64,000 nucleotides of DNA from Marivita hallyeonensis (lineage in GTDB: Bacteria > Pseudomonadota > Alphaproteobacteria > Rhodobacterales > Rhodobacteraceae), in NCBI RefSeq assembly GCF_900129875.1, contig NZ_FQXC01000001.1, positions 682,001 to 746,000 on the forward strand, written 5' to 3'. Position numbers and translations under genes: made by a program. Positions 28,223 through 44,230 of the stretch are shown piece by piece. The notes beneath the pieces are model-generated. The model searched no databases and had not been told where the DNA came from. It saw only the letters and a program-made list of their open reading frames with translations. Within the stretch, counting starts at the first letter, position 1, and the number at the start of each line of letters is the position of its first letter.

Positions 28223-30868
28223 TCAGCCGCGCGAGAACCACACGAGGATTTGCCCCGCAATCAGCGGCACGACACTGAAGACCACCGCAAGGGCAACACC
28301 GGACAGGTCGGGCGGCGGTAACCGCAGGACTTCCGAAAAGAGTGGCAGCCAGACGGCTGCAACGGTCAACAGAAGGCACAGCGCAATGGCGATCCATATA
28401 TACGGGTTGCGCGAGATTTCGTTGACGATCACCCCGTCCCGGCGCTTGCGCACGTTGAACACGTTCCAAAGCTGCGCAAAGGCGATTGTCAGAAACGCGA
28501 TGGTGATCGCCTCTGGCTGCGCGGTTCCCAGATAGAACAGCGCACCCGCATAGGCCCCAAGCGTCGCGCAGGCGATGATCAAGCCGAGAACCGAGATATG
28601 GATCCACGCAGCCCGGTTGACGATGGGCGCTTTCGGATCGCGCGGCGGGTCTTTCATCACGGACGCATCACCGCGCCCCAGGCCAAGCGCGAACGCCGGG
28701 AAGACATCTGTCACGAGATTGAGAAACAGGATCTGCAATGGCAACAGCGGCGTAGACAGGCCCAGCCCCAAGGCAAAGGCAACGACCAGCACTTCGCTGA
28801 CATTGCAGGACATCAGGTACACCACGAAATTGCGGATGTTCGAGGCGATGATCCGTCCCTGCATCACCGCTTCGGCGATGGTGCTGAACGCATCGTCGAG
28901 CAAAACGATCTCGGACGCTTCGCGCGCCACCTGCGTGCCACGTTGGCCCATGGCGATGCCAATATCGGCTTTCTTGAGGGCAGGGGCGTCGTTCACGCCA
29001 TCGCCGGTCATCGCAACGATGCGGCCCTCTTTCTGGTGAAATGCCACGAGATCGAGCTTGTTCGCCGGGGCCACCCGGGCGAAGATCCGTGCCTTGCTGA
29101 TGCGCTCGGCAAAATCGGGATCGAGGTTTTCCGGATCGAAATCGCGCAACTCACGCCCCTGAACCACGTCCGCACCGGCTTCTGCAATGCCAGCTTCCGT
29201 GGCGATGGCGGCCGCGGTCGTGGGGTGGTCCCCGGTGATCATGACGACATCGATGCCCGCGTCCCGGCAGGCGGCAATAGCGGCGGGCACGTCCTCGCGC
29301 ACCGGATCGGCGAGACAGACCAGCCCGATCAGCTCCAGCTGCTCGAACGGGTCTTTGAGAGAGGTGCCATCGGCCCGCATTGCGAGCGCTAGACACCGCA
29401 ACCCTTTCGCCGTTTCTTCCTTCGTTTTCGTCAGCCATCCCTTCTTTTCGTCACCGGTCAGGGGCACTGGACCCGACGGACCGACCACAGTTGTGCTGGC
29501 CGCAATCACCGCTTCCGGGGCGCCTTTGACCAGAAAGACAGACCCGTCTTGAACGGCATGCACTGTCGCCATCATCAAGAGGTCGGGATCGAACGGGTGG
29601 GTTTGCGTTGCCGGACCAATGCCGCAGACCCGGGCCGTATCGAATGCCGCCTCGTCTGCCGCGCGGACCAGTGCCGCTTCCATAGGGTCACCGGCATAGG
29701 CAGAGCCGGGTCCGGTCGTGTTGCACAACGCGCCGACGCAGAAGGCCCACCGCAACGCGGCGTTCTCGTCGATCCGCAGACCGTCCATCTTTTCCAGGTC
29801 AACCGTTGCATCGGGCAGGATGAAGCGGACCACTTCCATGCGGTTCTCGGTCAGCGTGCCCGTCTTGTCGGTGAGGATCATCGTGGTGGAGCCGAGCGTT
29901 TCGACCGCCGACAGGCGGTTGATCAACGCATTGCGCCGCGCCATGCGCAGCATCCCGCGCGCAAGGCAGAGCGTGGCGACAATTGGCAGACCTTCGGGAA
30001 TGGCGGCGACGGCAAGGGCGACGCCGGTCTGGATCATGTCGGCCAGCGGCTGGTCCCGCAGCACGCCCAGAAGGACCGTCAAAACCACAAGAACCAGCGT
30101 CAGACCGATCAGCCTTTGCCCCAGCCGGTCCAACCGCCGTTCCAGCGGGGACGCCTCGTCTTCCACGCTTTGCAGCAGATGCGCGATCTGACCGATTTCG
30201 GTACCCATCCCGGTGGCCGTCACAACCGCTTCGCCCTGACCCTGCGTGACCGAAGACCCCCGATGCGCCATCGATGTGCGGTCTCCCAGGACCGCGTCCG
30301 CTGCAACCGGAGTGGTGGATTTCGACACCGGAACGGATTCGCCCGTCAGTGTGGATTCGTCGCAATGCAGGTTCGTGGTCGCGATCAGCCGCGCATCCGC
30401 CGGAACCAGATCCCCCGCCTCCAGAAGCACAATATCCCCCGGAACAAGGTCTTGCGCCGGGACGGTGGTCACGCGGGCATCCCGGCGAACCCGAGCAAAA
30501 AGCTGCGCGTAGGCGTAAAGCGCCTCCATCGATCGCGCCGCGCGAAGTTCGGTGACGAAACCGATGGTCGTGTTGATCACCAGCACGAGTGCGACGGCGA
30601 TGGCTTCGACATAGTCGGTCAGAAAAACCGAGAACACCGCAGCCCCGACCAGCAGCCATGTCACAAGGCTGTTGAACTGATGCAGAAGGATCGACAGCAC
30701 GCTGCGCGGCTTTTGCCGCTGCAACAAGTTGGGGCCGTATTTGGTAGATCGTGATGCGACTTCGGCCGCGCTCAGCCCCGTGTCGGGCGAAACGCCAAGC
30801 CAAGCCACCACCTGATCCGATGGCGCCGAATAGGGATGTCGTTCACTCGATGATTCAGGCTCATCCAT
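28223..30868 (-). CDS. P-type cation-transporting ATPase (P2/Ca2+-type)
   Basis: 881-residue ATP-driven cation pump with the full P-type layout. The N-terminal cation-ATPase region is residues ~15-75 and the actuator loop has TLTGES. Helix 4 carries PEGLP (VAAIPEGLPIVATLC). The phosphorylation site is ILTDKTGTLTEN, the hinge TGDGVNDAPALKKADIG. Helices 5-6 contain SCNVSEVLVV and NLVTDVFPAFALG, the positions that coordinate ions in Ca2+ and Na+ pumps. Heavy-metal domains are absent. It starts 10 bp after ppsA on the same strand and has only a weak ribosome binding site, so it likely depends on the ppsA transcript. Ion specificity (Ca2+, Na+ or Mn2+) is open. Confidence 0.92.
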   Translation of the reverse strand: MDEPESSSERHPYSAPSDQVVAWLGVSPDTGLSAAEVASRSTKYGPNLLQRQKPRSVLSILLHQFNSLVTWLLVGAAVFSVFLTDYVEAIAVALVLVINTTIGFVTELRAARSMEALYAYAQLFARVRRDARVTTVPAQDLVPGDIVLLEAGDLVPADARLIATTNLHCDESTLTGESVPVSKSTTPVAADAVLGDRTSMAHRGSSVTQGQGEAVVTATGMGTEIGQIAHLLQSVEDEASPLERRLDRLGQRLIGLTLVLVVLTVLLGVLRDQPLADMIQTGVALAVAAIPEGLPIVATLCLARGMLRMARRNALINRLSAVETLGSTTMILTDKTGTLTENRMEVVRFILPDATVDLEKMDGLRIDENAALRWAFCVGALCNTTGPGSAYAGDPMEAALVRAADEAAFDTARVCGIGPATQTHPFDPDLLMMATVHAVQDGSVFLVKGAPEAVIAASTTVVGPSGPVPLTGDEKKGWLTKTKEETAKGLRCLALAMRADGTSLKDPFEQLELIGLVCLADPVREDVPAAIAACRDAGIDVVMITGDHPTTAAAIATEAGIAEAGADVVQGRELRDFDPENLDPDFAERISKARIFARVAPANKLDLVAFHQKEGRIVAMTGDGVNDAPALKKADIGIAMGQRGTQVAREASEIVLLDDAFSTIAEAVMQGRIIASNIRNFVVYLMSCNVSEVLVVAFALGLGLSTPLLPLQILFLNLVTDVFPAFALGLGRGDASVMKDPPRDPKAPIVNRAAWIHISVLGLIIACATLGAYAGALFYLGTAQPEAITIAFLTIAFAQLWNVFNVRKRRDGVIVNEISRNPYIWIAIALCLLLTVAAVWLPLFSEVLRLPPPDLSGVALAVVFSVVPLIAGQILVWFSRG

Positions 30869-30877
30869 GCGCCGATA

Positions 30878-33265
30878 TCATCGTTGATTTTCTGCCTCCG
30901 CAACCTGTGTTTTGACCCGGAAGAAACTGTCCGGGGTCACAGAGATGGAATCGATGCCGAATTCGACAAGCGTCCGGGCGAATTCCGGGTAATTCGACGG
31001 AGCCTGCCCACACAACCCGACCTTTGCCCCCGCGCCGTGGGCCTTTTCGATCACCGTTCGGATCATCCACTGCACCGCGTCGTGGCGTTCGTCGAACAGC
31101 GGCGCCAGCTGGTCGCTGTCCCGGTCGATGCCAAGCGTCAGCTGCGTCAGGTCGTTCGATCCGATGGAGAAGCCGTCGAACCGCTCAGCGAACGCCTCGG
31201 CGAGGATCACGTTCGAGGGCACTTCGCACATCACATAGATCTGCAGCCCGTTCTCTCCGCGCGTGAGACCTTCTTCGGCCATGACGGCCAGAACCTTGTC
31301 CGCCTCTTCCGGAGTCCGGCAGAACGGCACCATGATCAACACATTGTCAAAGCCCGCGCTTTCGCGCAGCCGGTGGATGGCCCGGCATTCAAGGCGGAAC
31401 CCGTCGATATAGGCCGGGTCGTAGTACCGCGACGCCCCGCGCCAGCCGATCATCGGGTTCGACTCTTCCGGTTCGAACTGCCGACCGCCCAGAAGATCGG
31501 CGTATTCGTTGGTCTTGAAATCGCTCAGTCGCAGGATCATCGGGTTGGGATAGGCGACCGCAGCGATCCGCGACAGACCCAGCGCAAGCTGATCGACGAA
31601 GTATTCGGCCTTGTCGTCATACCCTTTGGTGAGGTTTTCGATTTCGGCCCGCACCTCGGCATCGCGCAGATCCTGGAATTTCAAAAGTGCCATCGGATGC
31701 ACGCGGATCGTGTTCGAGATCACGAATTCCATCCGGGCCAGTCCGACCCCATCGCAGGGCAATCGCCACCACCGTGCCGCAATGGCTGGGTTCGCAAGGT
31801 TGAGCATCACCTTCGTGCGCGTCTCGGGCACATCGTCGAGTTTCAGGTCTTCAATCTTGAACGTCGCCTGTCCGGCGTAGACGTACCCTTCATCCCCTTC
31901 GGCGCAGCATACCGTGACTTCCTGCTGATCGTGCAGCACATGCGTCGCGTCTCCGCAGCCGACAATGGCCGGCACGCCAAGCTCGCGGCTGACGATGGCG
32001 GCGTGGCTGGTGCGCCCGCCGTGATCCGTCACAATGGCCGACGCGCGCTTCATCACCGGCACCCAGTCCGGATCGGTGGTAGACGTGACAAGCACCGATC
32101 CGTCGACGAAGTCGTCGATATCTTTGACGTCCTCTATCAGACAGACACGCCCCGTGGCGATCTGTTCGCCCACTGACAGACCGGTCGTCATCACCGGGCC
32201 ATGATCTCCAATCTGGTAGCTTTTCAATGTCCCCGCCGCGACGCGGGACTGCACCGTTTCAGGCCGCGCCTGCACGATGAAAAGCTGCCCGGTATTGCCG
32301 TCCTTGGCCCATTCCATATCCATCGGTTGGCCGTAATGCGCTTCGATGGTGGCGGCCTGCCGCGCAAGGTCGAGAACCTCGTCATCGCTCAAGACAAAGC
32401 GTTCGCGCTCGGCTTTCGAGGTCGGCACATTGCGCACCGGATCAGGCCCGTCGTCACTGGAATAGATCATCTTGATCTCTTTTGCGCCGAGCTTCTTTTC
32501 CACGATGGGCTTGACCCCGTCGCGCGTCAGGAACGGTTTATAGACCTGAAACTCATCCGGTGTGACCGCGCCCTGAACCACGTTTTCGCCGAGTCCCCAG
32601 GCAGCATTGATAAGGATGATCTTGTCGAAGCCCGATTCCGTATCGATGGAGAACATTACGCCCGACCCGCCAATGTCCGAGCGCACCATCTGCTGCACGC
32701 CGACCGACAGTGCGACGTCCATATGATCAAAGCCCTTGACCTTGCGATAGGTGATCGCCCGGTCGGTGAAAAGCGAGGCAAAGCATTTGCGGCAGGCGGT
32801 CAGAAGGTCGTCTTCGCCGACAACATTCAGATACGTCTCCTGCTGCCCGGCAAAGCTTGCATCCGGCAGGTCCTCCGCCGTGGCGCTGGAACGCACCGCC
32901 ACCGACACGTTGGGCTGCCCGGCCCGGTCCGACAGATCGCGATACGCTTGCCGGATCGCCGCCTCGGTTGCTTCGGGCCAGTCCCCGGCGACAATCGCAT
33001 TGCGAATGCTGTCGCCGGTCTGGTGCAGGCTGATCTTTCCAGCGTCGTGATCCGCCAACACCTCAGAGATGACCGTGTGCAGGTTATTGGCCGCGATGTA
33101 CTTCCGAAACGCATCGGCCGTGGTCGCAAATCCTGGCGGAACAAGAATGTTCTTCGCGCCAAGCTCTTGCACCATTTCCCCGAGCGACGAGTTCTTGCCG
33201 CCGACAAGAGCCACGTCATCGCGACGCAACTCATCGAAAAAGATCACCTCGTCCTTGTTTCCCAT
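30878..33265 (-). CDS. ppsA: Phosphoenolpyruvate synthase
   Basis: 795-residue cytoplasmic PEP synthase (pyruvate + ATP + water to PEP + AMP + Pi), close to the usual ~790. The ATP-grasp N-terminal domain has VALVGGKNSSLGEM and AVRSSATAEDLPDASFAGQQ. The swivelling domain carries the phosphohistidine in DHGGRTSHAAIVSRELG. The C-terminal PEP-binding barrel has GVGLARMEF and SNDLTQLTLGIDRDS. The ATG at 33265 has GGAGGA 7 bp upstream; a GTG one codon earlier is the alternative. It is transcribed divergently from a small gene, with an FNR-type box midway, and leads into the P-type ATPase gene. Confidence 0.95.
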   Translation of the reverse strand: MGNKDEVIFFDELRRDDVALVGGKNSSLGEMVQELGAKNILVPPGFATTADAFRKYIAANNLHTVISEVLADHDAGKISLHQTGDSIRNAIVAGDWPEATEAAIRQAYRDLSDRAGQPNVSVAVRSSATAEDLPDASFAGQQETYLNVVGEDDLLTACRKCFASLFTDRAITYRKVKGFDHMDVALSVGVQQMVRSDIGGSGVMFSIDTESGFDKIILINAAWGLGENVVQGAVTPDEFQVYKPFLTRDGVKPIVEKKLGAKEIKMIYSSDDGPDPVRNVPTSKAERERFVLSDDEVLDLARQAATIEAHYGQPMDMEWAKDGNTGQLFIVQARPETVQSRVAAGTLKSYQIGDHGPVMTTGLSVGEQIATGRVCLIEDVKDIDDFVDGSVLVTSTTDPDWVPVMKRASAIVTDHGGRTSHAAIVSRELGVPAIVGCGDATHVLHDQQEVTVCCAEGDEGYVYAGQATFKIEDLKLDDVPETRTKVMLNLANPAIAARWWRLPCDGVGLARMEFVISNTIRVHPMALLKFQDLRDAEVRAEIENLTKGYDDKAEYFVDQLALGLSRIAAVAYPNPMILRLSDFKTNEYADLLGGRQFEPEESNPMIGWRGASRYYDPAYIDGFRLECRAIHRLRESAGFDNVLIMVPFCRTPEEADKVLAVMAEEGLTRGENGLQIYVMCEVPSNVILAEAFAERFDGFSIGSNDLTQLTLGIDRDSDQLAPLFDERHDAVQWMIRTVIEKAHGAGAKVGLCGQAPSNYPEFARTLVEFGIDSISVTPDSFFRVKTQVAEAENQR

Positions 33266-33324
33266 CACTCGCTCCTCCGCTGCTCGGGCCTTTGTGGATC
33301 GTAACCGGGGCGCGTGGCGGAACC

Positions 33325-33338
33325 TTGATCTCTGTCAA
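33325..33338. promoter_or_regulatory. FNR/CRP-family box (TTGAT-N4-GTCAA)
   Basis: TTGATCTCTGTCAA is a perfect symmetric match to the FNR/FnrL/Dnr consensus. Its centre (33331.5) is 66 bp from the ppsA ATG and 62 bp from the ATG at 33394. A class II site at -41.5 would place both transcription starts 20-25 bp before those codons. On the minus strand TACGAT at 33298-33303 fits the -10 position. Confidence 0.75.
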
Positions 33339-33393
33339 CGCCGAAGCGGACAAGCCCCGCCATCGTGACCACAACAGATTGAGGGAGAGATCT

Positions 33394-33744
33394 ATGGACA
33401 TGGAACTTGCCGCGCTGGCCGAAGACGTCGAAGCCGCATTGGTCTTGGAAGACGACCTTGCCGATCGGGCCCTGAAGGTGATCAACGGCATGGCGTCCGA
33501 TCTTGGCATTGCACGCGCCGATCTGGATTCGACCGACAGCGTGCTTGGCGTCATCTACAAGGTGCGCCCTGGCTGGAGCGTGTCGATCCGCGGCAACGCC
33601 ACCATGCCCAACGGCCACTGGCGCTGCACCCTGCGCAAGTCGTCTTCGCGCGACAATGACGAATACCTCGGCATCGGGCGCGGTCCGACCTTGCCGCATT
33701 CGCTTCTGGCCGCGCTACTCAAGGCGATGAGCTTCACCAAATAG
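33394..33744 (+). CDS. Small protein of unknown function in the redox island
   Basis: 116 residues, soluble, acidic N-terminal half (DMELAALAEDVEAALVLEDD) and a C-terminal region with RPGWSVSIRGNATMPNGHWR and LPHSLLAALLKAMSF. I do not recognise a family. The start at 33394 has GAGGGAGAG upstream. It is divergent from ppsA across the FNR-type box and 41 bp before the PfkB gene on the same strand, so it is probably co-expressed with the energy genes. Confidence 0.75.
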   Translation: MDMELAALAEDVEAALVLEDDLADRALKVINGMASDLGIARADLDSTDSVLGVIYKVRPGWSVSIRGNATMPNGHWRCTLRKSSSRDNDEYLGIGRGPTLPHSLLAALLKAMSFTK

Positions 33745-33785
33745 CGCACTTTTGACAAGCGTCGGAACCGTTTAGAAGGGTGCGC

Positions 33786-34733: not shown

Positions 34734-34744
34734 GGCTGGGACAG

Positions 34745-35929
34745 TCACTCACCTGCCTGTTGGCGCGCCTCATTTACCATACGGTCCTGCCGTCGGATGA
34801 TGGCCAGGGTGATGGGCGGTCCAAACAACTCGAACACCACGGTCGCGGCGATTGTCACGGTCAGGATCGTTGCCGCCCATTGCGGCACGGTTTCCGCCGC
34901 GACCAGCGCCATCCCAACGGCGACCCCGGCCTGAGGCAATAGCGCGATCCCGTACAAGTGCCGTTCCTCCTTCGGTACACCGGCCAGCCAGGCACCTATG
35001 CTGCCACTGGCAAGACGCGCAAGCACGCGCAGTCCCACATACGCCGCGGCAACCCATCCGAGAGCCCGGAGCGCGTCCAACTCAAGCGATGCGCCCGCCA
35101 AAAGGAAGAACAGCAACATGAACGGCTGTTCGATCTGCTCGATCTCGTTGAAGGCGTACTCGTGGTGACTGGCAAGATTGGCAATCATCGCGCCTGCCGT
35201 CATGCCCGCGATAAGGAAGGACACATCCATCCAAAGTGCCAGCCCGGCGGTCAGGAACACGATGCCGAACGCCTCGGTCTGCAAGGGTTCGCCGCTCTTG
35301 AGCCGCCCAGACAGATACGCCGCCGGGCCACCGATCACGACACCCAGCAATAACGCCCCGCCGATGTGGTGCCCCGCGTTCAGGATCGGACCCGACCAGT
35401 CGTCTGACGGGTTCACCGCGGCGAGGCACAGGCTGAAGACGATGAGCCCCCACACATCGTCGATGGCCACGATCCCGCTGATCGTCTCGGTGAACCCGTT
35501 GCGCACCCCGGACTGTTGGATCACATCGGCAATTGCCGCCGGTGCCGTGGCGGTCGCGATAGCGCCAAGCAGCAGCGCCAGTCCCGGGTGAAGACCCAGC
35601 GCGGACAGACCAATCCAAACGGTCAGTGTCGTGCCGATGACGATCATCACCGAGATGAAGAAAATCGCCCGCCCATGTTGCGTCAGGTTCTCGCGCGTGA
35701 GGTCCGCGCCCAGCAGAAACGCCACCATCGTCAGTGCCACGACCGAGATTGGCTCGAACCAGTCCGCTGATTGATCGGGCAAGAGGCCAAAGCCGGACTG
35801 ACCGACCACCAGCCCTAACATGAGTAAAAGCGTGACCCGGGGCAGGCGGGTCACGCGCCCGAAATGTTCGGCCGCCAGACCGCCCAGAAACAGGACACCC
35901 AGCGTGATCAACGGAAGCGCCTGATCCAT
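34745..35929 (-). CDS. Cation:proton antiporter, CPA2/NhaP-KefB-like
   Basis: 394 residues with about 12 hydrophobic segments and no C-terminal nucleotide-binding domain. Conserved features are an early GLVVGQSGFGLLPD region, the central ATATAPAAIADVIQQSGV and the VAIDDVWGLIVFSL segment, whose acidic residue is typical of electroneutral Na+(K+)/H+ antiporters. It follows the pentaheme cytochrome gene on the same strand (45 bp) and is probably co-transcribed. Next to an Na+-pumping NADH dehydrogenase it may use or rebuild the Na+ gradient; that is inference. Confidence 0.87.
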   Translation of the reverse strand: MDQALPLITLGVLFLGGLAAEHFGRVTRLPRVTLLLMLGLVVGQSGFGLLPDQSADWFEPISVVALTMVAFLLGADLTRENLTQHGRAIFFISVMIVIGTTLTVWIGLSALGLHPGLALLLGAIATATAPAAIADVIQQSGVRNGFTETISGIVAIDDVWGLIVFSLCLAAVNPSDDWSGPILNAGHHIGGALLLGVVIGGPAAYLSGRLKSGEPLQTEAFGIVFLTAGLALWMDVSFLIAGMTAGAMIANLASHHEYAFNEIEQIEQPFMLLFFLLAGASLELDALRALGWVAAAYVGLRVLARLASGSIGAWLAGVPKEERHLYGIALLPQAGVAVGMALVAAETVPQWAATILTVTIAATVVFELFGPPITLAIIRRQDRMVNEARQQAGE

Positions 35930-35974
35930 TTTGGTGACCTTATCCTTAAGCGGGCTGCGCGCCGGGTCCGCCGG

Positions 35975-37156
35975 TTAGCGCAGCAGGTCCATCGCTTCGA
36001 AGTCGATGCCCAACGGGCCGCTGAGATCTGCAATGGAGTCGTAGAGAAGCTCTAGCGCGTATTTCGGATTATGGGCGTAGTTGCCCGGATCGGCGGTCAC
36101 GAGCTTCCAGTTGAACGCGGTACGCAGGCTGCGCGGCGTCCAGGACCCATAGGCCACGGGCCGCCCGTCCTCACCGGTGTCGATGACGCCATCCCCGTTG
36201 GCATCCGAGAAGAAGTACGGATAGCGATTTCCGTCATAAATGACCGGTGCGCCGGCAACCTCTTCCGTGTAGTCGCGGATCAGGTCCAGAAGTGTTTCGG
36301 CGTTCGCGGAAATGTCAGAGCTGATGCCGACCGACACGTTGCCACTGCCATCATAGCTTTGCCGCGCAATACGGATTTCCTCGGGGCTGTTGGCCTGGTG
36401 ACAGGTCAGGCACGGCTCGAATTCAACTTCAAGCGTGTGCGGCTCGTGGCAGGAATTGCAACTCGCAACCGGGCGGGCGTGGAAGAACCGTCCCGAATAG
36501 TCCTTTCCGTCGTAGTGATACCCTGATGCGCCGTAGCCGCCCAGCCACGTCGCCGCAGCCGTCGCATAATGCGGGTTGATGAAGCGTAGGTCGCCATTCG
36601 GCTCGTCCACGGCAAGGTTCGCAATCGCGGTTTCCACGTTGATCCCTGCCGTCCGTCCCTGATGGCAGGTCAGGCAGGACGCCTCGACCCCCTGCACAGG
36701 ATGCACCAACCCGCTGGGAAAGGTGATCTCTTTGATGTTGGCAAGCCCCGCATTGTGGCATGTCCCGCAATCGACGACACCGCCCGTGTTGATCGTTCCG
36801 TTGACCACGCCGGCCTCGGTGCCATCCAACCCGTGAAAATCGCGGAACCCTTCGCCCGAGTGGCAGGTCGCGCAGGCGGCGCGGATCTCGCCATCGTCGT
36901 CCCAGTGACTGAATGCTTCGGCAGCCGCGTTGGCATGGGCAGAACGGAACCAGTCCGCGATTGCCTTGTCGTTGTCGATCTTGATTTCGGCAGGCGTAAA
37001 CGGGCCCGACTGCGGAAGCGCAAAGGGAATCGCGGCCTCGCCCTCTTCGTTTGAGGCGCCATCTGATTGGGCAAACGCTAGCCCGCCAAGCAGGCAGGCG
37101 GCAAAACTGGACATCAAAATCAACGACTTGGGGGATAGAATAGGGCGCGCGGACAT
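35975..37156 (-). CDS. Periplasmic pentaheme cytochrome c with an EF-hand-type loop
   Basis: 393 residues from the ATG at 37156 (AGGAGA upstream). A signal peptide covers about residues 1-30 (LILMSSFAACLLGGLAFAQ). Five CXXCH heme sites occur: CATCH 95-99, CGTCH 130-134, CLTCH 161-165, CNSCH 233-237 and CLTCH 249-253. The C-terminal part is heme-free and contains a complete EF-hand/dockerin-like loop, DANGDGVIDTGE at 318-329. Further His residues (SGYHYDG, NPHYATA) could be distal ligands. It does not match nitrite reductase NrfA (no CXXCK) or NapC/NirT. It likely shuttles electrons in the periplasm and may be Ca2+-stabilised. It is divergent from nqrA and followed by the antiporter. Confidence 0.82.
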   Translation of the reverse strand: MSARPILSPKSLILMSSFAACLLGGLAFAQSDGASNEEGEAAIPFALPQSGPFTPAEIKIDNDKAIADWFRSAHANAAAEAFSHWDDDGEIRAACATCHSGEGFRDFHGLDGTEAGVVNGTINTGGVVDCGTCHNAGLANIKEITFPSGLVHPVQGVEASCLTCHQGRTAGINVETAIANLAVDEPNGDLRFINPHYATAAATWLGGYGASGYHYDGKDYSGRFFHARPVASCNSCHEPHTLEVEFEPCLTCHQANSPEEIRIARQSYDGSGNVSVGISSDISANAETLLDLIRDYTEEVAGAPVIYDGNRYPYFFSDANGDGVIDTGEDGRPVAYGSWTPRSLRTAFNWKLVTADPGNYAHNPKYALELLYDSIADLSGPLGIDFEAMDLLR

Positions 37157-37224
37157 CAAAACTCTCCTGATGTGAGATCTGGATGAATCATCCACAGCCT
37201 AGGCCGGGAAGAGGCAGTCACACG

Positions 37225-37238
37225 TTGACGTCGATCAT
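37225..37238. promoter_or_regulatory. Weak FNR-like box upstream of nqrA
   Basis: TTGACGTCGATCAT fits TTGAY-N4-ATCAA with one mismatch at the end. It lies 100 bp before the nqrA ATG and 68 bp before the cytochrome gene ATG in the divergent region. A TGGATG/CATCCA palindrome is nearby at 37180-37194. Confidence 0.4.
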
Positions 37239-37338
37239 ATGAGCCTCCGAATCCCGTTGCTAAGCTGCGGTTTGTGCGACGTGTGGGATCACACGGAAAA
37301 GCGCTGCACGGATGGCAGCACAGCTCAGCGGAGGCAGA

Positions 37339-38607
37339 ATGGTCTTTTTCGGGCGCAATGCCGGATTGATGCCGGAATTTCCGTCTCCGGCGGGGCCGTC
37401 AGAGATCGAGGACGTCGTCACCGAGGAAGCGGCGATCCGGCCACCCTTGGGGCGCGCGGTCGCTGTGACGCCCTTGGTCAAAGAGGGCGACACCGTCGCG
37501 CGAGGCGCCGCACTTGCCTGCCTGCGCCACGCGCCGGATGTGTGCTTCGCTGCCCCCATCGCAGGCAAGGTCGCGCGCATGTCCCTTCTGCCCGGCCGCC
37601 GTATGTCGGAAATCGTGCTCTTCCGTGACGACAGTGGCGGCGTTGAGACGCACGACACCAACAAGGCCGACACGCAATCTGGTTTGCGCCGACTGATGCA
37701 GGACGCCGGGATGTGGCCCCGGATCGCGCGTCGCCCGTTCGGCGGTATGCCGCACCACGCCGAAACCCCTGCCGCGATTTTCGTCATGGCCACCGACACC
37801 CGCCCGCAAGCTCCGAATGTCCAAAAAGCCTTGGACGGCCAGAGAGACGCCTTCGCCCGCGGCCTCGACGCGCTCACGCTTCTGACTGACGGCCCGGTGG
37901 TCCTTTGCCACCCCGAAGGCGTGCCGGGTGTCGACACGAAAGCGGTCAGTGACCGCATCCAGTTCGCACCACGCGGCACGCGACATCCGCAAGGGTCACC
38001 CGGTATCTGCATCCACCAACTTTATCCCGCAGACATCGACACGCCGGTCTGGGACGTTCACGCCGAAGACGTGGCGGCGCTGGGCACGCTTCTCACCACC
38101 GGCTCTTTGCCGATGACGCGCCTCGTCAGCATTGCCGGTCCGGCGCTGCGAGAGAGCCGCACCGTCCGCACGCATATCGGGGCCGACCTGAGGCAGCTCA
38201 CACAACGCATCGTCGCGCCCGGACCGCATTTGCTGATGTCAGGCTCGCCGCTCGACGGCCTTTCGGCGCGTTGGCTTGGGGGCCGGGACCGGCAAGTCGC
38301 CGTGCTTCCGCGCGCCGCGCCCGCAAGACAGACACACTGGCTCTTCGCCGCGCTCACGCAGTCGGCGGGAACGCGACCCGCGATCCCGACCACGGCACTA
38401 TCGCAGGCCTTCGGCGGGGCCTTACCCGCCGCCGCGTTCATCCGCGCCTTGGCCTCCGGCGATGAAGAAACCGCAATGACCTTCGGCCTCCTGTCCCTTC
38501 TCGAAGAGGACGTGGCGCTCGCCGATTACGTTCTCAGCGAAGGTGGCACACTCCTTGCACAGTTCCGCGCCCTTCTCGACCATGTCGAAACGGAGTTCGC
38601 GGCATGA
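37339..38607 (+). CDS. nqrA: Na+-translocating NADH:quinone reductase subunit A
   Basis: 422-residue cytoplasmic subunit of Na+-NQR, divergent from the gammaproteobacterial form. Recognisable parts are the barrel-sandwich region with VKEGDTVARGAAL and AAPIAGKVARM, the middle AIFVMATDTRP, LVSIAGPALRESRTVRTHIG and the C-terminal SLLEEDVALADYVL. ATG at 37339 has GCGGAGGCAGA upstream; an earlier in-frame ATG at 37312 is less likely. It begins a nine-gene operon (nqrABCDEF-apbE-nqrM-CBS) whose members overlap or almost touch. NqrA carries no redox centre itself but contributes to the quinone site region. Confidence 0.88.
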   Translation: MVFFGRNAGLMPEFPSPAGPSEIEDVVTEEAAIRPPLGRAVAVTPLVKEGDTVARGAALACLRHAPDVCFAAPIAGKVARMSLLPGRRMSEIVLFRDDSGGVETHDTNKADTQSGLRRLMQDAGMWPRIARRPFGGMPHHAETPAAIFVMATDTRPQAPNVQKALDGQRDAFARGLDALTLLTDGPVVLCHPEGVPGVDTKAVSDRIQFAPRGTRHPQGSPGICIHQLYPADIDTPVWDVHAEDVAALGTLLTTGSLPMTRLVSIAGPALRESRTVRTHIGADLRQLTQRIVAPGPHLLMSGSPLDGLSARWLGGRDRQVAVLPRAAPARQTHWLFAALTQSAGTRPAIPTTALSQAFGGALPAAAFIRALASGDEETAMTFGLLSLLEEDVALADYVLSEGGTLLAQFRALLDHVETEFAA

Positions 38608-39386
38608 TCCGGGGCCTCTGGAGTCGCGAGACGGTCGCGATGGTGCTGCTGGCCGCCTATCTGCCGCTTGGCCTGTTCTGGCTCTGGCTCGGCGGGGTCG
38701 ACGCCATCGGGCGTCTTGGTCTGTCGGCACTGGTCGTGGCGTTCTGGCATCTTGTCTTCATGCTGGCCCGGGCGCAGGCGCCATCTTTGGCGGCGCTGAT
38801 CACCGCGTTCGCCATCGCGATGCTTGCTCCCGAGGATCTGGGCGTGTTCCGCCTCGCGTTGGGCATCAGCTTTGGCGTTGTCATGGGTGAACTGGTCTTT
38901 GGCGGTTGGGGCCGCAACGTGGTCAACCCTGCAACCGTTGCGCTGGCCTTCCTCGGTTTCGGGTTCCCGTCGTTTGCCTGGCCTATCTTTGACGCGCCCG
39001 TGGCCTGGGCGGCAATCCCCGCCGCGCTGATCGGCGTCCTGACAGGTGCCCTGTCCGCTGCCCTGCTGGGCGGGGCAGGGGCCGTCGCCCTGATCGCACT
39101 CGCGGCAGGACTTCTACCGCAGGACGCGCTGCTCGTCAGCGGGATCGTCCTTGTCCTTCTGGTGGCCGATCCCGTCACATCGGCCGCGACCCATCTCGGC
39201 CGCTGGATCAACGGCGCGCTCTACGCGAGCTTGGTCGTGCTGTTCGCCACCAACTGGACAGGCGCGGCACCGGTCCAGATCGCAGTCGCTGCCGCCCTGC
39301 TGTCATCGCTTGCCGCACCGCTTCTGGACGAGAAGGTGCTGGCCCTCTGGATCTACCAACGCAGGAGGCGTCATGGCCGGACCTGA
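38604..39386 (+). CDS. nqrB: Na+-NQR subunit B, shortened form
   Basis: 260-residue membrane protein, versus ~400-420 in classical NqrB. Membrane segments include LVFGGWGRNVVNPATVALAF, which corresponds to the conserved VFGG-GKN-NPA motif. The late LLVADPVTSAATHLGRWING matches the NqrB/RnfD DPV-A-T-G motif. The N-terminal extension is missing. No SGAT motif is seen where NqrB and RnfD normally attach FMN covalently by a threonine. It overlaps nqrA by 4 bp and nqrC by 14 bp. Assignment as NqrB rests on the two conserved motifs and operon position; electron transfer may differ from the textbook complex. Confidence 0.82.
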   Translation: MIRGLWSRETVAMVLLAAYLPLGLFWLWLGGVDAIGRLGLSALVVAFWHLVFMLARAQAPSLAALITAFAIAMLAPEDLGVFRLALGISFGVVMGELVFGGWGRNVVNPATVALAFLGFGFPSFAWPIFDAPVAWAAIPAALIGVLTGALSAALLGGAGAVALIALAAGLLPQDALLVSGIVLVLLVADPVTSAATHLGRWINGALYASLVVLFATNWTGAAPVQIAVAAALLSSLAAPLLDEKVLALWIYQRRRRHGRT

Positions 39387-40167: not shown

Positions 40168-40170
40168 GGC

Positions 40171-40836
40171 ATGGCCGCGCAGTTGAATGTCTGGCGCACC
40201 CTGACCGATCCGCTCATCCGGCAGAACCCGGTGACGCTGCAGATCCTCGGCATCTGCTCGGCCCTTGCCGTCACGACGACACTTGCCACGGCGCTGACCA
40301 TGTCGATCTCCCTGACCGTGGTCCTGACGCTTGCCGCGGGTGTCATCAGCATGATCCGGCGGCACATCCCGGACACCATCCGCCTCATCGTGCAGATCGT
40401 GATCGTCGCCTCTCTGGTGATCGTGATCGACCAGATCCTGCGCGCCTATTTCGCCGAGATAAGCCGTGCCCTGTCGGTCTATGTCGGGCTCATCACGACG
40501 AACTGCCTCGTCCTTGGCCGCACCGAGTCCTACGCGCGCCATCACGCCCCAATCCCCGCGATGGTCGATGCCTTGGGCAACGGGCTTGGCTATTCGCTGA
40601 TCCTCATCGTCATCGGAGGCCTGCGCGAACTCTTCGGCAAAGGTGCGCTGTTCGGGACGCAGGTTTTTCCGCTGGCCGAAACCGGCGGCTGGTTCACACC
40701 GCTAAGCCTGATGCTTCTGGCACCCTCCGCGTTCTTCCTGCTCGGACTGCTCGTCTGGGCGGTTCGCAGCTTCTGGAGCGAACAGGTTGAAGCGCCGGAA
40801 CACACGCCCCCCTTGCGTGTGGAGCCTGCCGAATGA
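40171..40836 (+). CDS. nqrD: Na+-NQR subunit D
   Basis: 221-residue membrane subunit with about six helices. Cysteines 29 (LGICSALAV) and 112 (TTNCLVLG) fall exactly where NqrD contributes two ligands to the intramembrane 2Fe-2S cluster shared with NqrE. The conserved PALGLG-like segment is MVDALGNGLGYSLILI. It starts 3 bp after the nqrC stop and overlaps nqrE by 4 bp. Confidence 0.93.
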   Translation: MAAQLNVWRTLTDPLIRQNPVTLQILGICSALAVTTTLATALTMSISLTVVLTLAAGVISMIRRHIPDTIRLIVQIVIVASLVIVIDQILRAYFAEISRALSVYVGLITTNCLVLGRTESYARHHAPIPAMVDALGNGLGYSLILIVIGGLRELFGKGALFGTQVFPLAETGGWFTPLSLMLLAPSAFFLLGLLVWAVRSFWSEQVEAPEHTPPLRVEPAE

Positions 40837-41447
40837 CCGCGCTTTGGGATCTCTTCCTGATGGCGGCCTTCGTCGACAACATGCCGCTGACGCTCTTTCT
40901 GGGGCTGTGCACGTTCCTTGCCTTGTCGAAGCGTCCCGAAGCTGCGTTTGGCCTCGGTATCGCGATGATCTGTGTGCTTGGCGTGACGGTGCCTCTGAAC
41001 AACCTGATCTATCAGGGCCTTCTCGCGCCCGGGGCGTGGTCCTGGGCAGGCCTGCCCGACCTTGACCTGTCTTACCTGTCACTCATCGCGTTTATCGGTG
41101 TGATCGCGGCATCGGTGCAGGTGCTCGAACTCCTGCTCGACCGGTTTCTGCCGTCGATCCACACCGCCTTCGGCGTCTTCCTGCCCTTGCTCACCGTGCA
41201 ATGCGCGATCCTTGCGGGCAGCCTCTTCATGGTCGAACGCAGCTACACATTCGTGGAATCGGCGGTCTTTGGACTGGGCAGCGGGTTCGGCTTCGCCGTT
41301 GCGGTCGCCATGCTCGCCGCGATCCGGTCTCGACTGGCCTATGCGGATCTGCCCGCCGGGCTGCGCGGTCTGGGCATCGCCTTTGTACTGGCCGGGTTGA
41401 TGTCGCTGGGCTTTGCCTCCTTCGCACAAATGGCAGCGGCGCAATGA
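40833..41447 (+). CDS. nqrE: Na+-NQR subunit E
   Basis: 204-residue membrane subunit, the inverted-topology partner of NqrD. Cysteines 26 (FLGLCTFLA) and 124 (TVQCAILAG) are in the positions that complete the intramembrane 2Fe-2S site. The helices and the phrase GVFLPLLTVQCAILAG are highly conserved in NqrE/RnfA. It overlaps both neighbours by 4 bp (ATGA junctions). Confidence 0.93.
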   Translation: MTALWDLFLMAAFVDNMPLTLFLGLCTFLALSKRPEAAFGLGIAMICVLGVTVPLNNLIYQGLLAPGAWSWAGLPDLDLSYLSLIAFIGVIAASVQVLELLLDRFLPSIHTAFGVFLPLLTVQCAILAGSLFMVERSYTFVESAVFGLGSGFGFAVAVAMLAAIRSRLAYADLPAGLRGLGIAFVLAGLMSLGFASFAQMAAAQ

Positions 41448-42667
41448 CCGAGGTTCTGCTGGGAAGCCTTGTCATCGTGGCGCTGATCGTCGGCATGGCT
41501 ATGGGGGTCCTGATCCTGCAACGCAGGCTGATCCCGGACACCGGCCTGGATATCGCGGTGAACGAAACACTCCACGTCTCCGCGCGGCGGGGCGACAGGC
41601 TTCTGAGTGCGTTGCACGGCGCAGGGATCATGATCCCCGCTGCCTGTGCCGGGTCGGGCACTTGCGGGCTGTGCCGGGTAACCGTCACGGGCGATGGCGC
41701 GGGGGAACCGCAGGCCACCGAACGCGGCGTCCTTTCCCCACGTGAACGCCGCGCCCACATGCGGCTTGCCTGCCAGACCAGCCTGCGCGGCGATTGCGCG
41801 GTCAAGGTGCCGGACGATGTGCTCACCTCCGGGGCGCGGTTCGTCAGTAAGATCGCCTCGACCCGCATGCTGGCCCCGTTGATCCGCGAGATCGTGGTCG
41901 ATCTGCCGAAAGAGCAGTCCTCGGAGTTCCGCGCGGGCGATTTCATGCAGATCACGGCACCGCCGTACAGGCTGGACTTCGGAACCCTTGAGCTGCCCCC
42001 GGAGTATCGCGACGCCTGGGACATCGCAGGCTGGAGCGCGATGAGCGTCACGTCCGATGCCGAGGTCACGCGGGCCTATTCTCTCGCCACCCGGCCCGAG
42101 GACCAGGGTCAGGCGGTGTTCAACATCCGCCTTGCCGTGCCACCCGCGGGCCGCGAAGACGAGGTGCCGCCGGGCCTCGTGTCGTCCTGGCTCTTTTCGG
42201 TGAAGTCCGGCGACGATATCACGCTGTCCGGACCCTTCGGCAGTTTCCACATCCAGCCGACCGAGCGCGAGATGGTCTATGTCGGCGGCGGCGTCGGCAT
42301 GGCCCCGCTGCGCGCCATGATCCACCAGGCACTGTCGCAGGGTACCACCCGCCGCATTCGCTACTTCTACGGCGCCCGCTCCGCTGCCGATCTCTTCTAC
42401 GCCGACGAGTTCACCCAACTGGCTGACCGTCACGCCAATTTCAGCTTTTCACCGGCCTTGTCAGACCCCGCGCCCGGCGATCGCTGGACCGGAGCAACCG
42501 GGTTCATCCACGAAACCCTGCGCGCCGAGATGAGTCGCCACCCTGCGCCGGAGGACTGCGAGTATTACCTGTGCGGCCCGCCGGTCATGGTCTCTGCCGT
42601 CCTCGCGACACTGGGGCGCCTCGGAGTCGACCGCAGCGCGATCTTTTACGATGATTTTGGAGCCTGA
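41444..42667 (+). CDS. nqrF: Na+-NQR subunit F (NADH-oxidising, 2Fe-2S and FAD)
   Basis: 407 residues. The N-terminal anchor is about residues 5-27. The plant-type ferredoxin domain has cysteines 68, 74, 77 and 110 (CAGSGTCGLC, then LACQT). The FAD domain has RAYSLAT, the NADH domain has YVGGGVGMAPLRAM, and the C-terminal CGPPVMVSAVL ends in FYDDFGA. This is the NADH entry point of the complex. ATG at 41444 overlaps nqrE. Confidence 0.95.
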   Translation: MTEVLLGSLVIVALIVGMAMGVLILQRRLIPDTGLDIAVNETLHVSARRGDRLLSALHGAGIMIPAACAGSGTCGLCRVTVTGDGAGEPQATERGVLSPRERRAHMRLACQTSLRGDCAVKVPDDVLTSGARFVSKIASTRMLAPLIREIVVDLPKEQSSEFRAGDFMQITAPPYRLDFGTLELPPEYRDAWDIAGWSAMSVTSDAEVTRAYSLATRPEDQGQAVFNIRLAVPPAGREDEVPPGLVSSWLFSVKSGDDITLSGPFGSFHIQPTEREMVYVGGGVGMAPLRAMIHQALSQGTTRRIRYFYGARSAADLFYADEFTQLADRHANFSFSPALSDPAPGDRWTGATGFIHETLRAEMSRHPAPEDCEYYLCGPPVMVSAVLATLGRLGVDRSAIFYDDFGA

Positions 42668-42670
42668 GAC

Positions 42671-43648
42671 ATGACCCACCGTTCACATGGCCTTTCCCGA
42701 CGTCACGTGCTTGGCTGTATCGGAGCGACGCTTGCCTTGCCCAACGCCCTTCGGGCCAGCCAGACGAACATGATCCAAGGGACTGCGTTCGGCACCCATT
42801 GGCGCGTCATGGCGTCGACGGCAGAGGTGGGCGCCGAGATGACCCGACGGGTCGATGCGATCTGCGCCGAAGTCGACCAGCAATTCTCACCGTGGCGTCC
42901 GGACAGCCTCCTAAGCCGCTTCAACCACGGCGGGGCAGGGGACAGATTGTCCGAGCCTGACGTGCTCACAGTCACTGCCGCCGCGCTCGACATCGCCCGC
43001 AAAAGCGACGGTGCTTTCGATCCAACCGTAGGACCGCTCGTCGCCCGCTGGGGTTTTGGCCCGATCACCGAAGGAGGCGCAGCGGACTGGCGCGCGCTGG
43101 ATCTGACCGAAACAGACCTGTCCAAAAACACGCCCGACCTGACGCTCGACCTCTGCGGCATCGCCAAGGGCTGGGCGCTCGATCGGATCGCGCACGAGGC
43201 GCGCCGCTCCGGCCATGACAACCTGCTGTTCGATCTCGGCGGGGAATTTGTGGCGTTGGGCCAGCATCCCGATGGGCGAGATTGGCAGATCGCCATCGAA
43301 CCGCCGATCCCGGGCGCGCAACCGCACATCGTGTTGCGCCTGCCGCCCGGCATGGCGGTGGCGACCTCCGGAACAGCCGCGCAAAGCTACAGCGTCAACG
43401 GGCGGCTCTACAGCCACATCATCGACCCGGTGACCGGCACGCCGGCAACGGGCAGGCTGCGCTCTGTCACCGTGGCCGCCGCCGACGCGATGACGGCCGA
43501 TGGCTGGGCCACCGCGCTCTTCGTCGCCGGGGACATCGCCGGACCGGATCTGGCGCGGACCCACCAGATCGACGCTGTGTTCCAGATCGAAGCCGAGGGC
43601 ACACTAAGAGACGTGCGTACAGGCTCCGTGTCGGGTCTGATCCTGTGA
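42671..43648 (+). CDS. apbE: ApbE, FAD:protein FMN transferase
   Basis: 325-residue periplasmic Mg-dependent transferase that attaches FMN to threonine in Nqr/Rnf subunits. A Tat-like or lipoprotein-like leader (SRRHVLGCIGATLALP) starts the protein. Conserved segments are FGTHWRV, EVDQQFSPWRPDSLLSRFN, DPTVGPLV, the DLCGIAKGWALD loop, FDLGGEF and the C-terminal HIIDPVTG with AMTADGWATALFV. It follows nqrF by 3 bp, so its target here is surely NqrC; no second target motif is seen in NqrB. Confidence 0.93.
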   Translation: MTHRSHGLSRRHVLGCIGATLALPNALRASQTNMIQGTAFGTHWRVMASTAEVGAEMTRRVDAICAEVDQQFSPWRPDSLLSRFNHGGAGDRLSEPDVLTVTAAALDIARKSDGAFDPTVGPLVARWGFGPITEGGAADWRALDLTETDLSKNTPDLTLDLCGIAKGWALDRIAHEARRSGHDNLLFDLGGEFVALGQHPDGRDWQIAIEPPIPGAQPHIVLRLPPGMAVATSGTAAQSYSVNGRLYSHIIDPVTGTPATGRLRSVTVAAADAMTADGWATALFVAGDIAGPDLARTHQIDAVFQIEAEGTLRDVRTGSVSGLIL

Positions 43649-43664
43649 TGCAAAGGATACGCTG

Positions 43665-43841
43665 ATGGAAATCCTGTTTGCCATCGCCATCGTGACACTC
43701 GCTGCCGGAGGTGTCGGGATCGGCCTGATTTTTGGACGTGGACCGGCCAAGACCAGTTGCGGCGCAGCGGACGCTTTGTCCGTCGGGCGCTGCCGCGACT
43801 GCCCACTCCGCCGACGCGCCGCATCGAAGGAGGCGTCATGA
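43665..43841 (+). CDS. nqrM: NqrM-like Na+-NQR maturation protein (58 aa)
   Basis: Short gene of 58 codons (ATG 43665, TGA 43839-43841). The product has one N-terminal membrane helix (EILFAIAIVTLAAGGVGIGL), then GRGPAKTSCGAAD with Cys32, and a CRDC pair (Cys43, Cys46) before a basic tail. This matches NqrM (DUF539), which supplies or inserts iron for the cluster between NqrD and NqrE. It starts 16 bp after apbE and overlaps the CBS gene by 4 bp (ATGA). Family members often have a fourth cysteine, not seen here. Confidence 0.85.
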   Translation: MEILFAIAIVTLAAGGVGIGLIFGRGPAKTSCGAADALSVGRCRDCPLRRRAASKEAS

Positions 43842-44230
43842 CCGAATATCGTGTCAGAGCAATCATGCGCACCGACATTCCGACCCTGACGGCCGAGACG
43901 CCCATCCGCCGCGCTGTTGCGGTGCTGGTCGACACAAAGTCCGCGGCGGCCCCTGTGCTTGGCGATGACGGCGCGCTGATCGGTATCCTGACGCAGAAAG
44001 ACTGCTTCCGCCCCGCGCTGCACGCCAGCTACCATCGCGAATGGACAGGGCGCGTCGCCGATCACATGTCACACGAGGTGATCGCCGTGACGATAGAAGA
44101 CGAGGTCATTCGTGTCGCAGAGATGTTCCTTGAACATCCGCACCGCGTTTTCCCGGTTATCAACGGTTCAAGCGTCGCGGGGCTTGTGCATCGCTCGGAT
44201 GTGCTTGCCCTTCTCAGCCGGATGGGCTGA
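43838..44230 (+). CDS. Tandem CBS-domain protein
   Basis: 130 residues made of two CBS domains (about 8-60 and 73-128), a Bateman module that binds adenine nucleotides. RAIMRTDIPTLTAETPIRRA and VADHMSHEVIAVTIEDEVIR are the two domain starts; RDVL-like HRSDVLALLSRM ends the second. There is no fused enzyme or channel. It is translationally coupled to nqrM and ends the nqr operon, so it may sense the energy state of the module (inference). It converges with recR. Confidence 0.87.
   Translation: MTEYRVRAIMRTDIPTLTAETPIRRAVAVLVDTKSAAAPVLGDDGALIGILTQKDCFRPALHASYHREWTGRVADHMSHEVIAVTIEDEVIRVAEMFLEHPHRVFPVINGSSVAGLVHRSDVLALLSRMG

What the first reader, a model, noticed from the sequence alone, without database searches (positions are those of the whole stretch)
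28223..44230. A 16-kb redox and ion-energy island with a shared FNR-type signal
Seen: P2-type cation ATPase, PEP synthase, unknown small protein, PfkB kinase, CPA2 antiporter, pentaheme cytochrome c, then nqrABCDEF-apbE-nqrM-CBS. The genes are arranged as divergent pairs around two intergenic regions, each with an FNR-like box. Known: Nqr pumps Na+, FNR-family proteins respond to oxygen or nitric oxide, and PpsA and PfkB steer carbon at PEP/fructose phosphates. Inference: this is a coordinated low-oxygen or dormancy module coupling NADH oxidation to Na+ export, antiport and carbon storage. I do not know it as a described unit.
Basis: partly seen in the sequence, partly recalled or inferred. 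Interest (0 to 1): 0.78.

Follow-up and report, generated by a model that had tools for sequence, protein, structure and literature searches.

The report
Rewired sodium pump with heme partner
A bacterium carries an altered version of the sodium-pumping respiratory enzyme NQR that has lost the parts normally used to hand electrons to quinone, and it is encoded back to back with a five-heme cytochrome that probably takes those electrons instead, so nature may have built a test of how this pump works.

Summary
The 16-kb island as a unit is not conserved: its core is ~8.3 kb (pentaheme cytochrome c, divergent from nqrABCDEF-apbE-nqrM-CBS; 35975-44230). NqrB is only 260 aa. It keeps the membrane fold but lacks the periplasmic loop carrying covalent FMN and the N-terminal stretch that holds the quinone pocket in Vibrio NQR, i.e. 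the route from NqrC-FMN to quinone. NqrC, D, E and F keep their cofactor motifs. This short NqrB is one lineage (single branch, support 100), under purifying selection, in 46 of 390 genomes of the order sample; 43 of the 46 have the intact pentaheme cytochrome divergent from nqrA. Two further loci have another heme protein there, and relatives of the cytochrome pair with a ferric-reductase-like oxidoreductase, which points to the cytochrome as electron partner. The FNR-type box is real: conserved at the cyt-nqr promoter and upstream of ppsA. Most likely: a low-oxygen, perhaps ion-pumping NADH:cytochrome c oxidoreductase; direction and final acceptor unknown, biochemistry untested. Closest known: Na+-NQR, two-subunit Nqr/Rnf-like complexes, Methanosarcina Rnf-MmcA. 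New variant of a known kind.

The parts
35975..37156 (-). pentaheme c-type cytochrome (cyt5), signal peptide and no lipobox by eye; GTG start at 37195 also possible
   Evidence: 5 CXXCH plus five invariant extra His in 27- and 41-row alignments; 72 of 72 named orthologues with an intact ORF have 5 hemes; Pfam Cytochrome_C7
37225..37238 (.). FNR-type box between cyt5 and nqrA, 2 mismatches here
   Evidence: conserved in relatives
37312..38607 (+). nqrA, divergent homologue (203 bits, cut-off 505)
38604..39386 (+). nqrB, short type, 260 aa: no FMN loop, no N-terminal quinone-site segment
39373..40167 (+). nqrC with flavinylation motif DGITGATRT
40171..40836 (+). nqrD with both cluster Cys
40833..41447 (+). 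nqrE with both cluster Cys
41444..42667 (+). nqrF, 2Fe-2S Cys motif, FAD and NAD domains
42671..43648 (+). apbE flavin transferase
43665..43841 (+). nqrM-like, 58 aa, Cys-rich C-terminus
   Evidence: position and motif; similar ORF in 68 of 68 named loci with apbE and cbs hits, by a loose pattern; no Pfam hit
43838..44230 (+). two-CBS-domain protein, end of the conserved unit
   Evidence: cbs hit in 75 of 80 named loci
34745..35929 (-). CPA2-like antiporter, frequent but not constant neighbour of cyt5
   Evidence: within 100 bp of cyt5 in 18 of 80 named loci
33325..33338 (.). FNR-type box between ppsA and the small ORF, 1 mismatch
   Evidence: box upstream of ppsA in 24 of 27 genomes at <=2 mismatches, window included
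30878..33268 (-). ppsA, probable member of the same regulon, rarely linked
28223..30868 (-). type-II P-ATPase, 9 bp downstream of ppsA; not part of the conserved core
33394..33744 (+). small ORF of unknown family, 116 aa
33780..34733 (+). PfkB-family sugar kinase; no hit in 80 named loci

Best explanation
The cluster encodes an NQR-derived membrane complex in which electrons run between cytosolic NADH and a periplasmic pentaheme cytochrome c, not between NADH and quinone. SHOWN (sequence): the NqrF cluster motif, the NqrD/E Cys and the NqrC flavinylation motif are retained; NqrB keeps the membrane fold (predicted model) but has lost the FMN-bearing periplasmic loop and the N-terminal stretch that holds the quinone pocket in Vibrio NQR; a cytochrome gene is divergent from nqrA in nearly all relatives examined, with a conserved FNR-type box in many of them. 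INFERRED: NADH -> FAD -> 2Fe-2S (NqrF) -> 2Fe-2S (NqrD/E) -> FMN (NqrC) -> cytochrome, switched on at low oxygen. Ion pumping through NqrD/E is plausible because these subunits are the closest to their canonical counterparts. The opposite flow (cytochrome to NAD+, driven by the ion gradient) is not excluded.
For: NqrB: 1 of 76 named short NqrB has any [ST]GA[ST], outside the loop; 39 of 39 newly fetched order-sample NqrB have none. Control: 25 of 25 canonical NqrB keep the loop with xGAT (19 [ST]GAT, 6 AGAT), as do the 6 family canonical rows. The short profile matches Vibrio NqrB in two pieces, about 129-220 and 277-411. The model (pLDDT 92.8) finds NqrB and RnfD structures first. NqrC [ST]GA[TS] in 76 of 76 (72 by the strict pattern), NqrF 2Fe-2S motif in 76 of 76. 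Linkage: 79 of 80 named loci, chosen by the cytochrome, have divergent nqrA (L136 is a contig end). In the order sample, chosen by NqrB, an intact divergent cytochrome in 43 of 46. In the family sample of 22 short-NqrB genomes, 18 have it divergent, G013 has it broken and on the same strand, G012 has a tetraheme c3-like protein and G108 an EB_dh-family protein with a CXXCH divergent from nqrA, G036 has none. Partner swap: in 6 of 9 family loci with the cytochrome but no nqr, the divergent neighbour is one protein cluster, Ferric_reduct+FAD+NAD in the 2 members tested. dN/dS for nqrB 0.07-0.32, nqrA 0.11-0.26, cytochrome 0.03-0.08 over 6 pairs. The genome has no other PF02508 (NqrD/E, RnfA/E) hit and has a complex I 49-kDa subunit.
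Against: No biochemistry. Divergent adjacency does not prove electron transfer. NqrA and NqrB are retained and under selection, so they do something, perhaps still quinone chemistry. NqrC's FMN might pass electrons straight to a non-covalent flavin in NqrB, as suggested for the two-subunit Nqr/Rnf-like complexes. Loss of the quinone-pocket segment rests on alignment of the N-terminus, where similarity is weak. 3 of 46 genomes lack an intact cytochrome at the site. The cytochrome model is poor (pLDDT 63), so its heme layout is unknown. The Phe gate F338/F342 is replaced (Ile/Leu in the window, my reading of the alignment), so any pumping through NqrB may be changed or lost.
Confidence: 0.57

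Rival explanations
1. Reverse flow: the cytochrome collects electrons in the periplasm and the complex pushes them uphill to NAD+, using a Na+ or H+ gradient.
For: The anatomy is the same; reverse operation is described for RNF. The genome has complex I for NADH oxidation.
Against: I identified no electron-donating enzyme fixed beside it; most neighbour clusters were not annotated, and those tested were ABC ATPases, an acyl-CoA-synthetase-like and an E1-dehydrogenase protein, and an exchanger. An FNR-type box fits an electron-disposal role at least as well.
Confidence: 0.2
2. Still a quinone reductase: NqrC FMN hands electrons directly to the non-covalent flavin of short NqrB and on to quinone; the cytochrome is a side entry or exit.
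For: NqrA and NqrB are kept under purifying selection. In the Nqr/Rnf-like complexes the C-type flavin is proposed to sample a non-covalent site in a B-type subunit without FMN.
Against: Both the FMN loop and the N-terminal quinone-pocket segment are missing, and cytochrome linkage is nearly constant.
Confidence: 0.18
3. The cytochrome is itself a terminal reductase (for example of a nitrogen or sulfur oxide), fed by the complex.
For: Weak profile similarity to pentaheme nitrite reductase NrfA (3ubr, E 5.7e-5, 7.5e-4); the top Foldseek hits of the poor model are NrfA (probability up to 0.20, none below E 0.001).
Against: A nine-heme electron-transfer cytochrome scores nearly as well (1duw, E 3.2e-4). 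All five motifs are CXXCH, not CXXCK. Five further His are invariant: they could serve five bis-His hemes, but NrfA too is recalled to have four distal ligands plus one active-site His, so the count does not decide. The 16-residue spacing of the last two hemes is unlike NrfA (recalled).
Confidence: 0.15
4. One reading: the whole 16 kb is one coordinated low-oxygen module for energy and carbon storage.
For: FNR-type boxes at two promoters, conserved; ppsA co-occurs with short NQR, 12 genomes with both of 149; antiporters recur nearby. In Dinoroseobacter a Dnr regulator controls a Na+/H+ antiporter and Na+-gradient genes matter for anaerobic growth (PMC5398030, passages).
Against: Gene order outside the core is not conserved: pfkB hit in 0, ppsA in 2 and ATPase in 7 of 80 named loci.
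Confidence: 0.1
5. The short NqrB marks a decaying complex without function.
For: Some loci are broken (G013, G510).
Against: dN/dS well below 1 for nqrA, nqrB and the cytochrome in 6 pairs; found in 46 of 390 genomes of the order sample, with the other motifs kept in the named set.
Confidence: 0.03

Closest known systems
Na+-NQR (Vibrio cholerae type)
   Same: Six subunits, apbE and an nqrM-like gene, NqrF FAD/NAD and 2Fe-2S motif, NqrD/E cluster Cys, NqrC flavinylation motif
   Different: NqrB lacks the FMN loop and the N-terminal quinone-site segment; near-constant divergent cytochrome; NqrA, B and C fall below the NCBIfam equivalog cut-offs; separated from canonical NqrB by one branch of 1.75 changes per column
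Nqr/Rnf-like two-subunit complexes (PMC11334425, passages and section 9 read)
   Same: B-type subunit without flavinylation site, C-type subunit with one; proposed one-way NAD(P)H to extracytosolic transfer
   Different: Those have two subunits, with an NAD domain fused to the B-type protein; here all six NQR subunits are present and the input route would run through NqrF and D/E
Methanosarcina Rnf with MmcA (PMC12174285 passages; PMC11024163 search listing only)
   Same: An RNF/NQR-type pump with a multiheme cytochrome c as extra partner
   Different: There the six RNF subunits are present with the cytochrome as an addition; here the normal exit route is deleted, the input is NQR-type, and the cytochrome has five hemes
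Ferric_reduct + FAD/NAD oxidoreductase paired with the same cytochrome family (loci L087, L089, L091-L094)
   Same: Divergent pair of this cytochrome with a membrane NAD(P)H module
   Different: Ferric-reductase-like conduit in place of NQR; six loci in one clade of the cytochrome tree

Membership tests
Na+-NQR | All six subunits nqrA-F in one operon | tested here: met
   (operon by gene order)
Na+-NQR | NqrF FAD/NAD domains and 2Fe-2S motif | tested here: met
   76 of 76 named NqrF have the Cys motif
Na+-NQR | Cys pairs of NqrD and NqrE for the membrane 2Fe-2S | tested here: met
Na+-NQR | Covalent-FMN motif in NqrC | tested here: met
   76 of 76 named with [ST]GA[TS]
Na+-NQR | Covalent-FMN loop in NqrB | tested here: not met
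   canonical control 25 of 25
Na+-NQR | N-terminal NqrB segment forming the quinone pocket | tested here: not met
   no counterpart of about the first 50 residues of Vibrio NqrB (weak similarity there); role of that segment from PMC12174285
Na+-NQR | Na+ pumping and NADH:quinone activity | not testable with these tools
   needs biochemistry; D346 and D397 counterparts are kept (D189 nearly invariant, D242 invariant)
Nqr/Rnf-like two-subunit complex | B-type domain fused to NAD-binding domain, two subunits only | tested here: not met
   NqrB is separate and six subunits are present
Pentaheme nitrite reductase NrfA | CXXCK catalytic heme (recalled) | tested here: not met
   five CXXCH in window and relatives
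FNR-type regulon | Conserved TTGAT-N4-ATCAA box in the promoter | tested here: met
FNR-type regulon | Oxygen-dependent expression | not testable with these tools
   needs RNA-seq

The most novel reading that the evidence does not exclude
A quinone-independent, ion-pumping NADH:cytochrome c oxidoreductase built from NQR by deleting its exit route, so that the periplasmic FMN of NqrC becomes the terminal flavin and feeds interchangeable periplasmic heme proteins. If it pumps without FMN in NqrB, the coupling step must lie at NqrD/E and NqrC.
Probability: 0.42. Interest if true: 0.87.

Novelty: new variant of a known kind. Interest (0 to 1): 0.73.

Why it matters
A 2025 review (PMC12174285, passages) calls the cofactors of the shared NQR/RNF membrane core strictly conserved and shows mechanisms that move Na+ at RnfA/E in one case and through NqrB in the other. 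This lineage keeps one half of the cofactor chain and has lost the other, so it could show directly which half pumps. It would also be an entry of NADH electrons into the periplasmic cytochrome pool that bypasses quinone, present in 46 of 390 genomes of the order sample and in some named genomes outside the family.

Tried and rejected
Island conservation: rejected beyond the core. The ORF at 33265-33699 (-) as the small protein: no family hit; the + strand ORF fits the promoter layout better. Decay of nqrB: rejected by dN/dS. Cytochrome structure: the model was too poor to read heme geometry. Counting invariant His to show bis-His coordination: not decisive, since NrfA would give the same count (recalled); my note had called it decisive. 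A promoter motif other than the FNR-type box: 7-mer and 5-mer palindrome counts gave nothing clearer. Rows dropped: two NqrB rows from G510 (L196, L319, the same place), a broken gene read into nqrC; L082 (broken) from the cytochrome alignment and tree, L316 from the NqrB tree; weak cytochrome hits in G034 and G012:C45 were not followed; of 31 ppsA matches I counted 28, leaving out G034, G097 and G146 (about 350 of 796 aa, 42-45% identity), and read 27 upstream regions (G061 is in pieces). The trees use part of the rows at hand: 66 NqrB and 39 cytochrome rows. Recurrent neighbour clusters: an acyl-CoA-synthetase-like protein, an E1 dehydrogenase, ABC ATPases and a second Na_H_Exchanger in the five proteins tested. 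Literature searches for this arrangement gave no description that I saw: (PMC open-licence library only; in several papers I read passages only, most listed papers were not opened).
Full report
What is there. The two boxes exist (33325, 1 mismatch; 37225, 2 mismatches), but in the window alone boxes with up to 2 mismatches are not clearly beyond chance (23 found, 16.1 expected, 6 of 100 shuffles as many).

NqrB is 260 aa where canonical NqrB is about 400. Aligned with canonical NqrB of the same family, it lacks the N-terminal stretch and the periplasmic loop with the DG[FY][ST]GAT flavinylation site. A profile of 20 short NqrB matches Vibrio cholerae NqrB in two pieces (about 129-220 and 277-411) with nothing in between. 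The AlphaFold model of the short protein is confident (pLDDT 92.8), and the 15 PDB matches with E <= 0.001 are all NqrB or RnfD (query TM 0.70-0.82, rmsd 3.4-12.3), so the membrane fold is kept. [quoted passage not shown] Both the FMN site and the quinone-pocket segment are gone here. The other cofactor motifs are kept: NqrF 2Fe-2S in 76 of 76, NqrC [ST]GA[TS] in 76 of 76 (72 of 76 by the strict pattern), and the NqrD and NqrE Cys. Of 76 named short NqrB one (L160) has a [ST]GA[ST] string, but not in the loop region; of 44 further rows, two have it, both the broken G510 gene read into nqrC. As a control, 25 of 25 canonical NqrB loci have xGAT in the loop, 19 as [ST]GAT and 6 as AGAT. Asp346 and Asp397 of Vibrio NqrB have counterparts (D189, D242), while the Phe gate 338/342 is Ile/Leu in the window (my reading of the alignment; gate residues). 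Identity to the six family canonical loci is 52-55% for NqrD and 55-58% for NqrE, against 28-31% for NqrA, 34-36% for NqrC and 39-40% for NqrF.

How general it is. Short-type NqrB: 22 of 149 genomes in the family sample (46 of 149 had any NqrB match), 46 of 390 in the order sample and 2 of 385 in the class sample, all in the window's family (E <= 1e-15). In 398 genomes drawn across the phylum, 5, all of this family, matched the short profile in one piece among the matches listed (capped list). A cytochrome-based scan of named genomes (80 loci kept of 475) also found the unit outside the family: Martelella, Mesorhizobium, Nitratireductor, Devosia, Aquamicrobium, Shinella, Microvirga, and one contig labelled Granulosicoccus. 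In a tree of 66 NqrB (loop and N-terminus left out), 35 short and 31 canonical rows are split by one branch (support 100, length 1.75; quick method, SH-aLRT only, with a warning about long branches). dN/dS in six close pairs is 0.07-0.32 (nqrB), 0.11-0.26 (nqrA) and 0.03-0.08 (cytochrome), so these look like working genes.

The cytochrome. The divergent gene encodes a five-heme cytochrome with a signal peptide (by eye): 72 of 72 named orthologues with an intact ORF have five CXXCH, and five further His are invariant in 27 and 41 rows. In the named set, chosen by this cytochrome, 79 of 80 loci have divergent nqrA; the 80th is a contig fragment. In the order sample, chosen by NqrB, 43 of 46 have an intact (five-heme) divergent cytochrome; G1121 has a remnant, G1178 and G036 none. 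In the family sample of 22, 18 have it divergent; in G013 it is broken and on the same strand; G012 has a tetraheme cytochrome c3-like protein at that place, G108 an EB_dh-family protein with a CXXCH, G036 none. The six canonical nqr loci fetched from the family have no multiheme ORF within the 20 kb read. Nine cytochrome loci of the family sample are not beside nqr; in six the divergent neighbour belongs to one protein cluster, which is Ferric_reduct + FAD + NAD in the two members tested, and these six form one clade lying among nqr-linked cytochromes. Thus the same cytochrome family is paired with two different membrane NAD(P)H modules, and the short NQR with different heme proteins. That is the main reason to regard the cytochrome as its electron partner.

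The promoter signal. In 80 cyt-nqrA intergenic regions (79 named and the window), 12 have <=1 and 38 have <=2 mismatches to TTGAT-N4-ATCAA; 40 shuffles gave means of 0.7 and 8.15; other orders of the same letters gave at most 1 and 20, other spacers at most 2 and 21. So about half of the named regions have no such box at <=2 mismatches. In the order sample, 18 and 28 of the 38 regions tested (of 46), controls at most 1 and 11. Upstream of ppsA: 17 and 24 of 27 genomes (window included), best permuted word 2 and 3, with 23 of the 24 lying 59-106 bp from the start. Many of these genomes are related, so the sites are not independent. An FnrL-like protein with a Cys cluster is in the genome (name recalled), but other FNR/DNR-type regulators share this box (passages), so the regulator is not named. 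The main texts of the FnrL/Dnr study of Dinoroseobacter (PMC5398030) and of the alphaproteobacterial regulon study (PMC2908626) hold no 'nqr', 'ppsA' or 'phosphoenolpyruvate' (term counts); the former does report Dnr control of a Na+/H+ antiporter and a role of Na+-gradient genes in anaerobic growth.

Mechanism. Most likely NADH electrons pass NqrF, the NqrD/E cluster and NqrC FMN, and leave to the periplasmic cytochrome at low oxygen (inferred). Whether ions are pumped, in which direction electrons flow, and what finally takes or gives them are open. The genome has a complex I subunit and no other NqrD/E-RnfA/E hit, so this complex is probably an auxiliary route. Rivals are listed with their tests.

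Place among known systems. It is derived from NQR but fails two features of Na+-NQR tested here, so I do not file it as a Na+-NQR. It works most like a cross of the two-subunit Nqr/Rnf-like complexes, whose B-type subunit also lacks the flavin site (PMC11334425, section 9 read), and Methanosarcina Rnf with its multiheme cytochrome (PMC11024163 seen in the listing only). I saw no description of it in the open-licence library (searches; passages of PMC8238504, PMC11334425, PMC12174285 and PMC4014512).

Noticed in passing
window 30878-33268 and L222-L248: ppsA of this type has an FNR-type box upstream in 24 of 27 genomes (<=2 mismatches, window included). Of 30 genomes with short NQR or a clear cytochrome homologue, 16 also have ppsA (28 of 149 do; p 1e-6, not corrected for phylogeny).
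   Followed up: partly
window 43838-44230: A small protein of two CBS domains closes the operon in most relatives (hit in 75 of 80 named loci); perhaps a nucleotide sensor for the complex.
   Followed up: no
L084 1373-2689, L085 1172-1522: Unrelated proteins (EB_dh family with a CXXCH; tetraheme c3-like) take the place of the pentaheme cytochrome next to short NQR.
   Followed up: partly
L087, L089, L091-L094: The same cytochrome family is divergent from a Ferric_reduct + FAD/NAD oxidoreductase; 4 of these 6 upstream regions hold an FNR-type box at <=2 mismatches.
   Followed up: partly
L076, L080: Near the cytochrome in these two loci lie ppsA, an acyl-CoA-synthetase-like protein and an E1-dehydrogenase-like protein, the last two typed by Pfam in L080 only.
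   Followed up: no
L066 8870-10600: A second kind of antiporter (Na_H_Exchanger + TrkA_N) directly follows the CBS gene in G116.
   Followed up: no
L088 7494-9311: A nine-heme cytochrome lies beside a pentaheme cytochrome without nqr.
   Followed up: no
L082 (G013), L319 (G510), L310 (G1121): Loci with broken nqr or cytochrome genes, perhaps signs of loss.
   Followed up: no
G099 and G125 (L065/L097, L078/L098): Two genomes of the family sample carry both a short and a canonical nqr operon.
   Followed up: no
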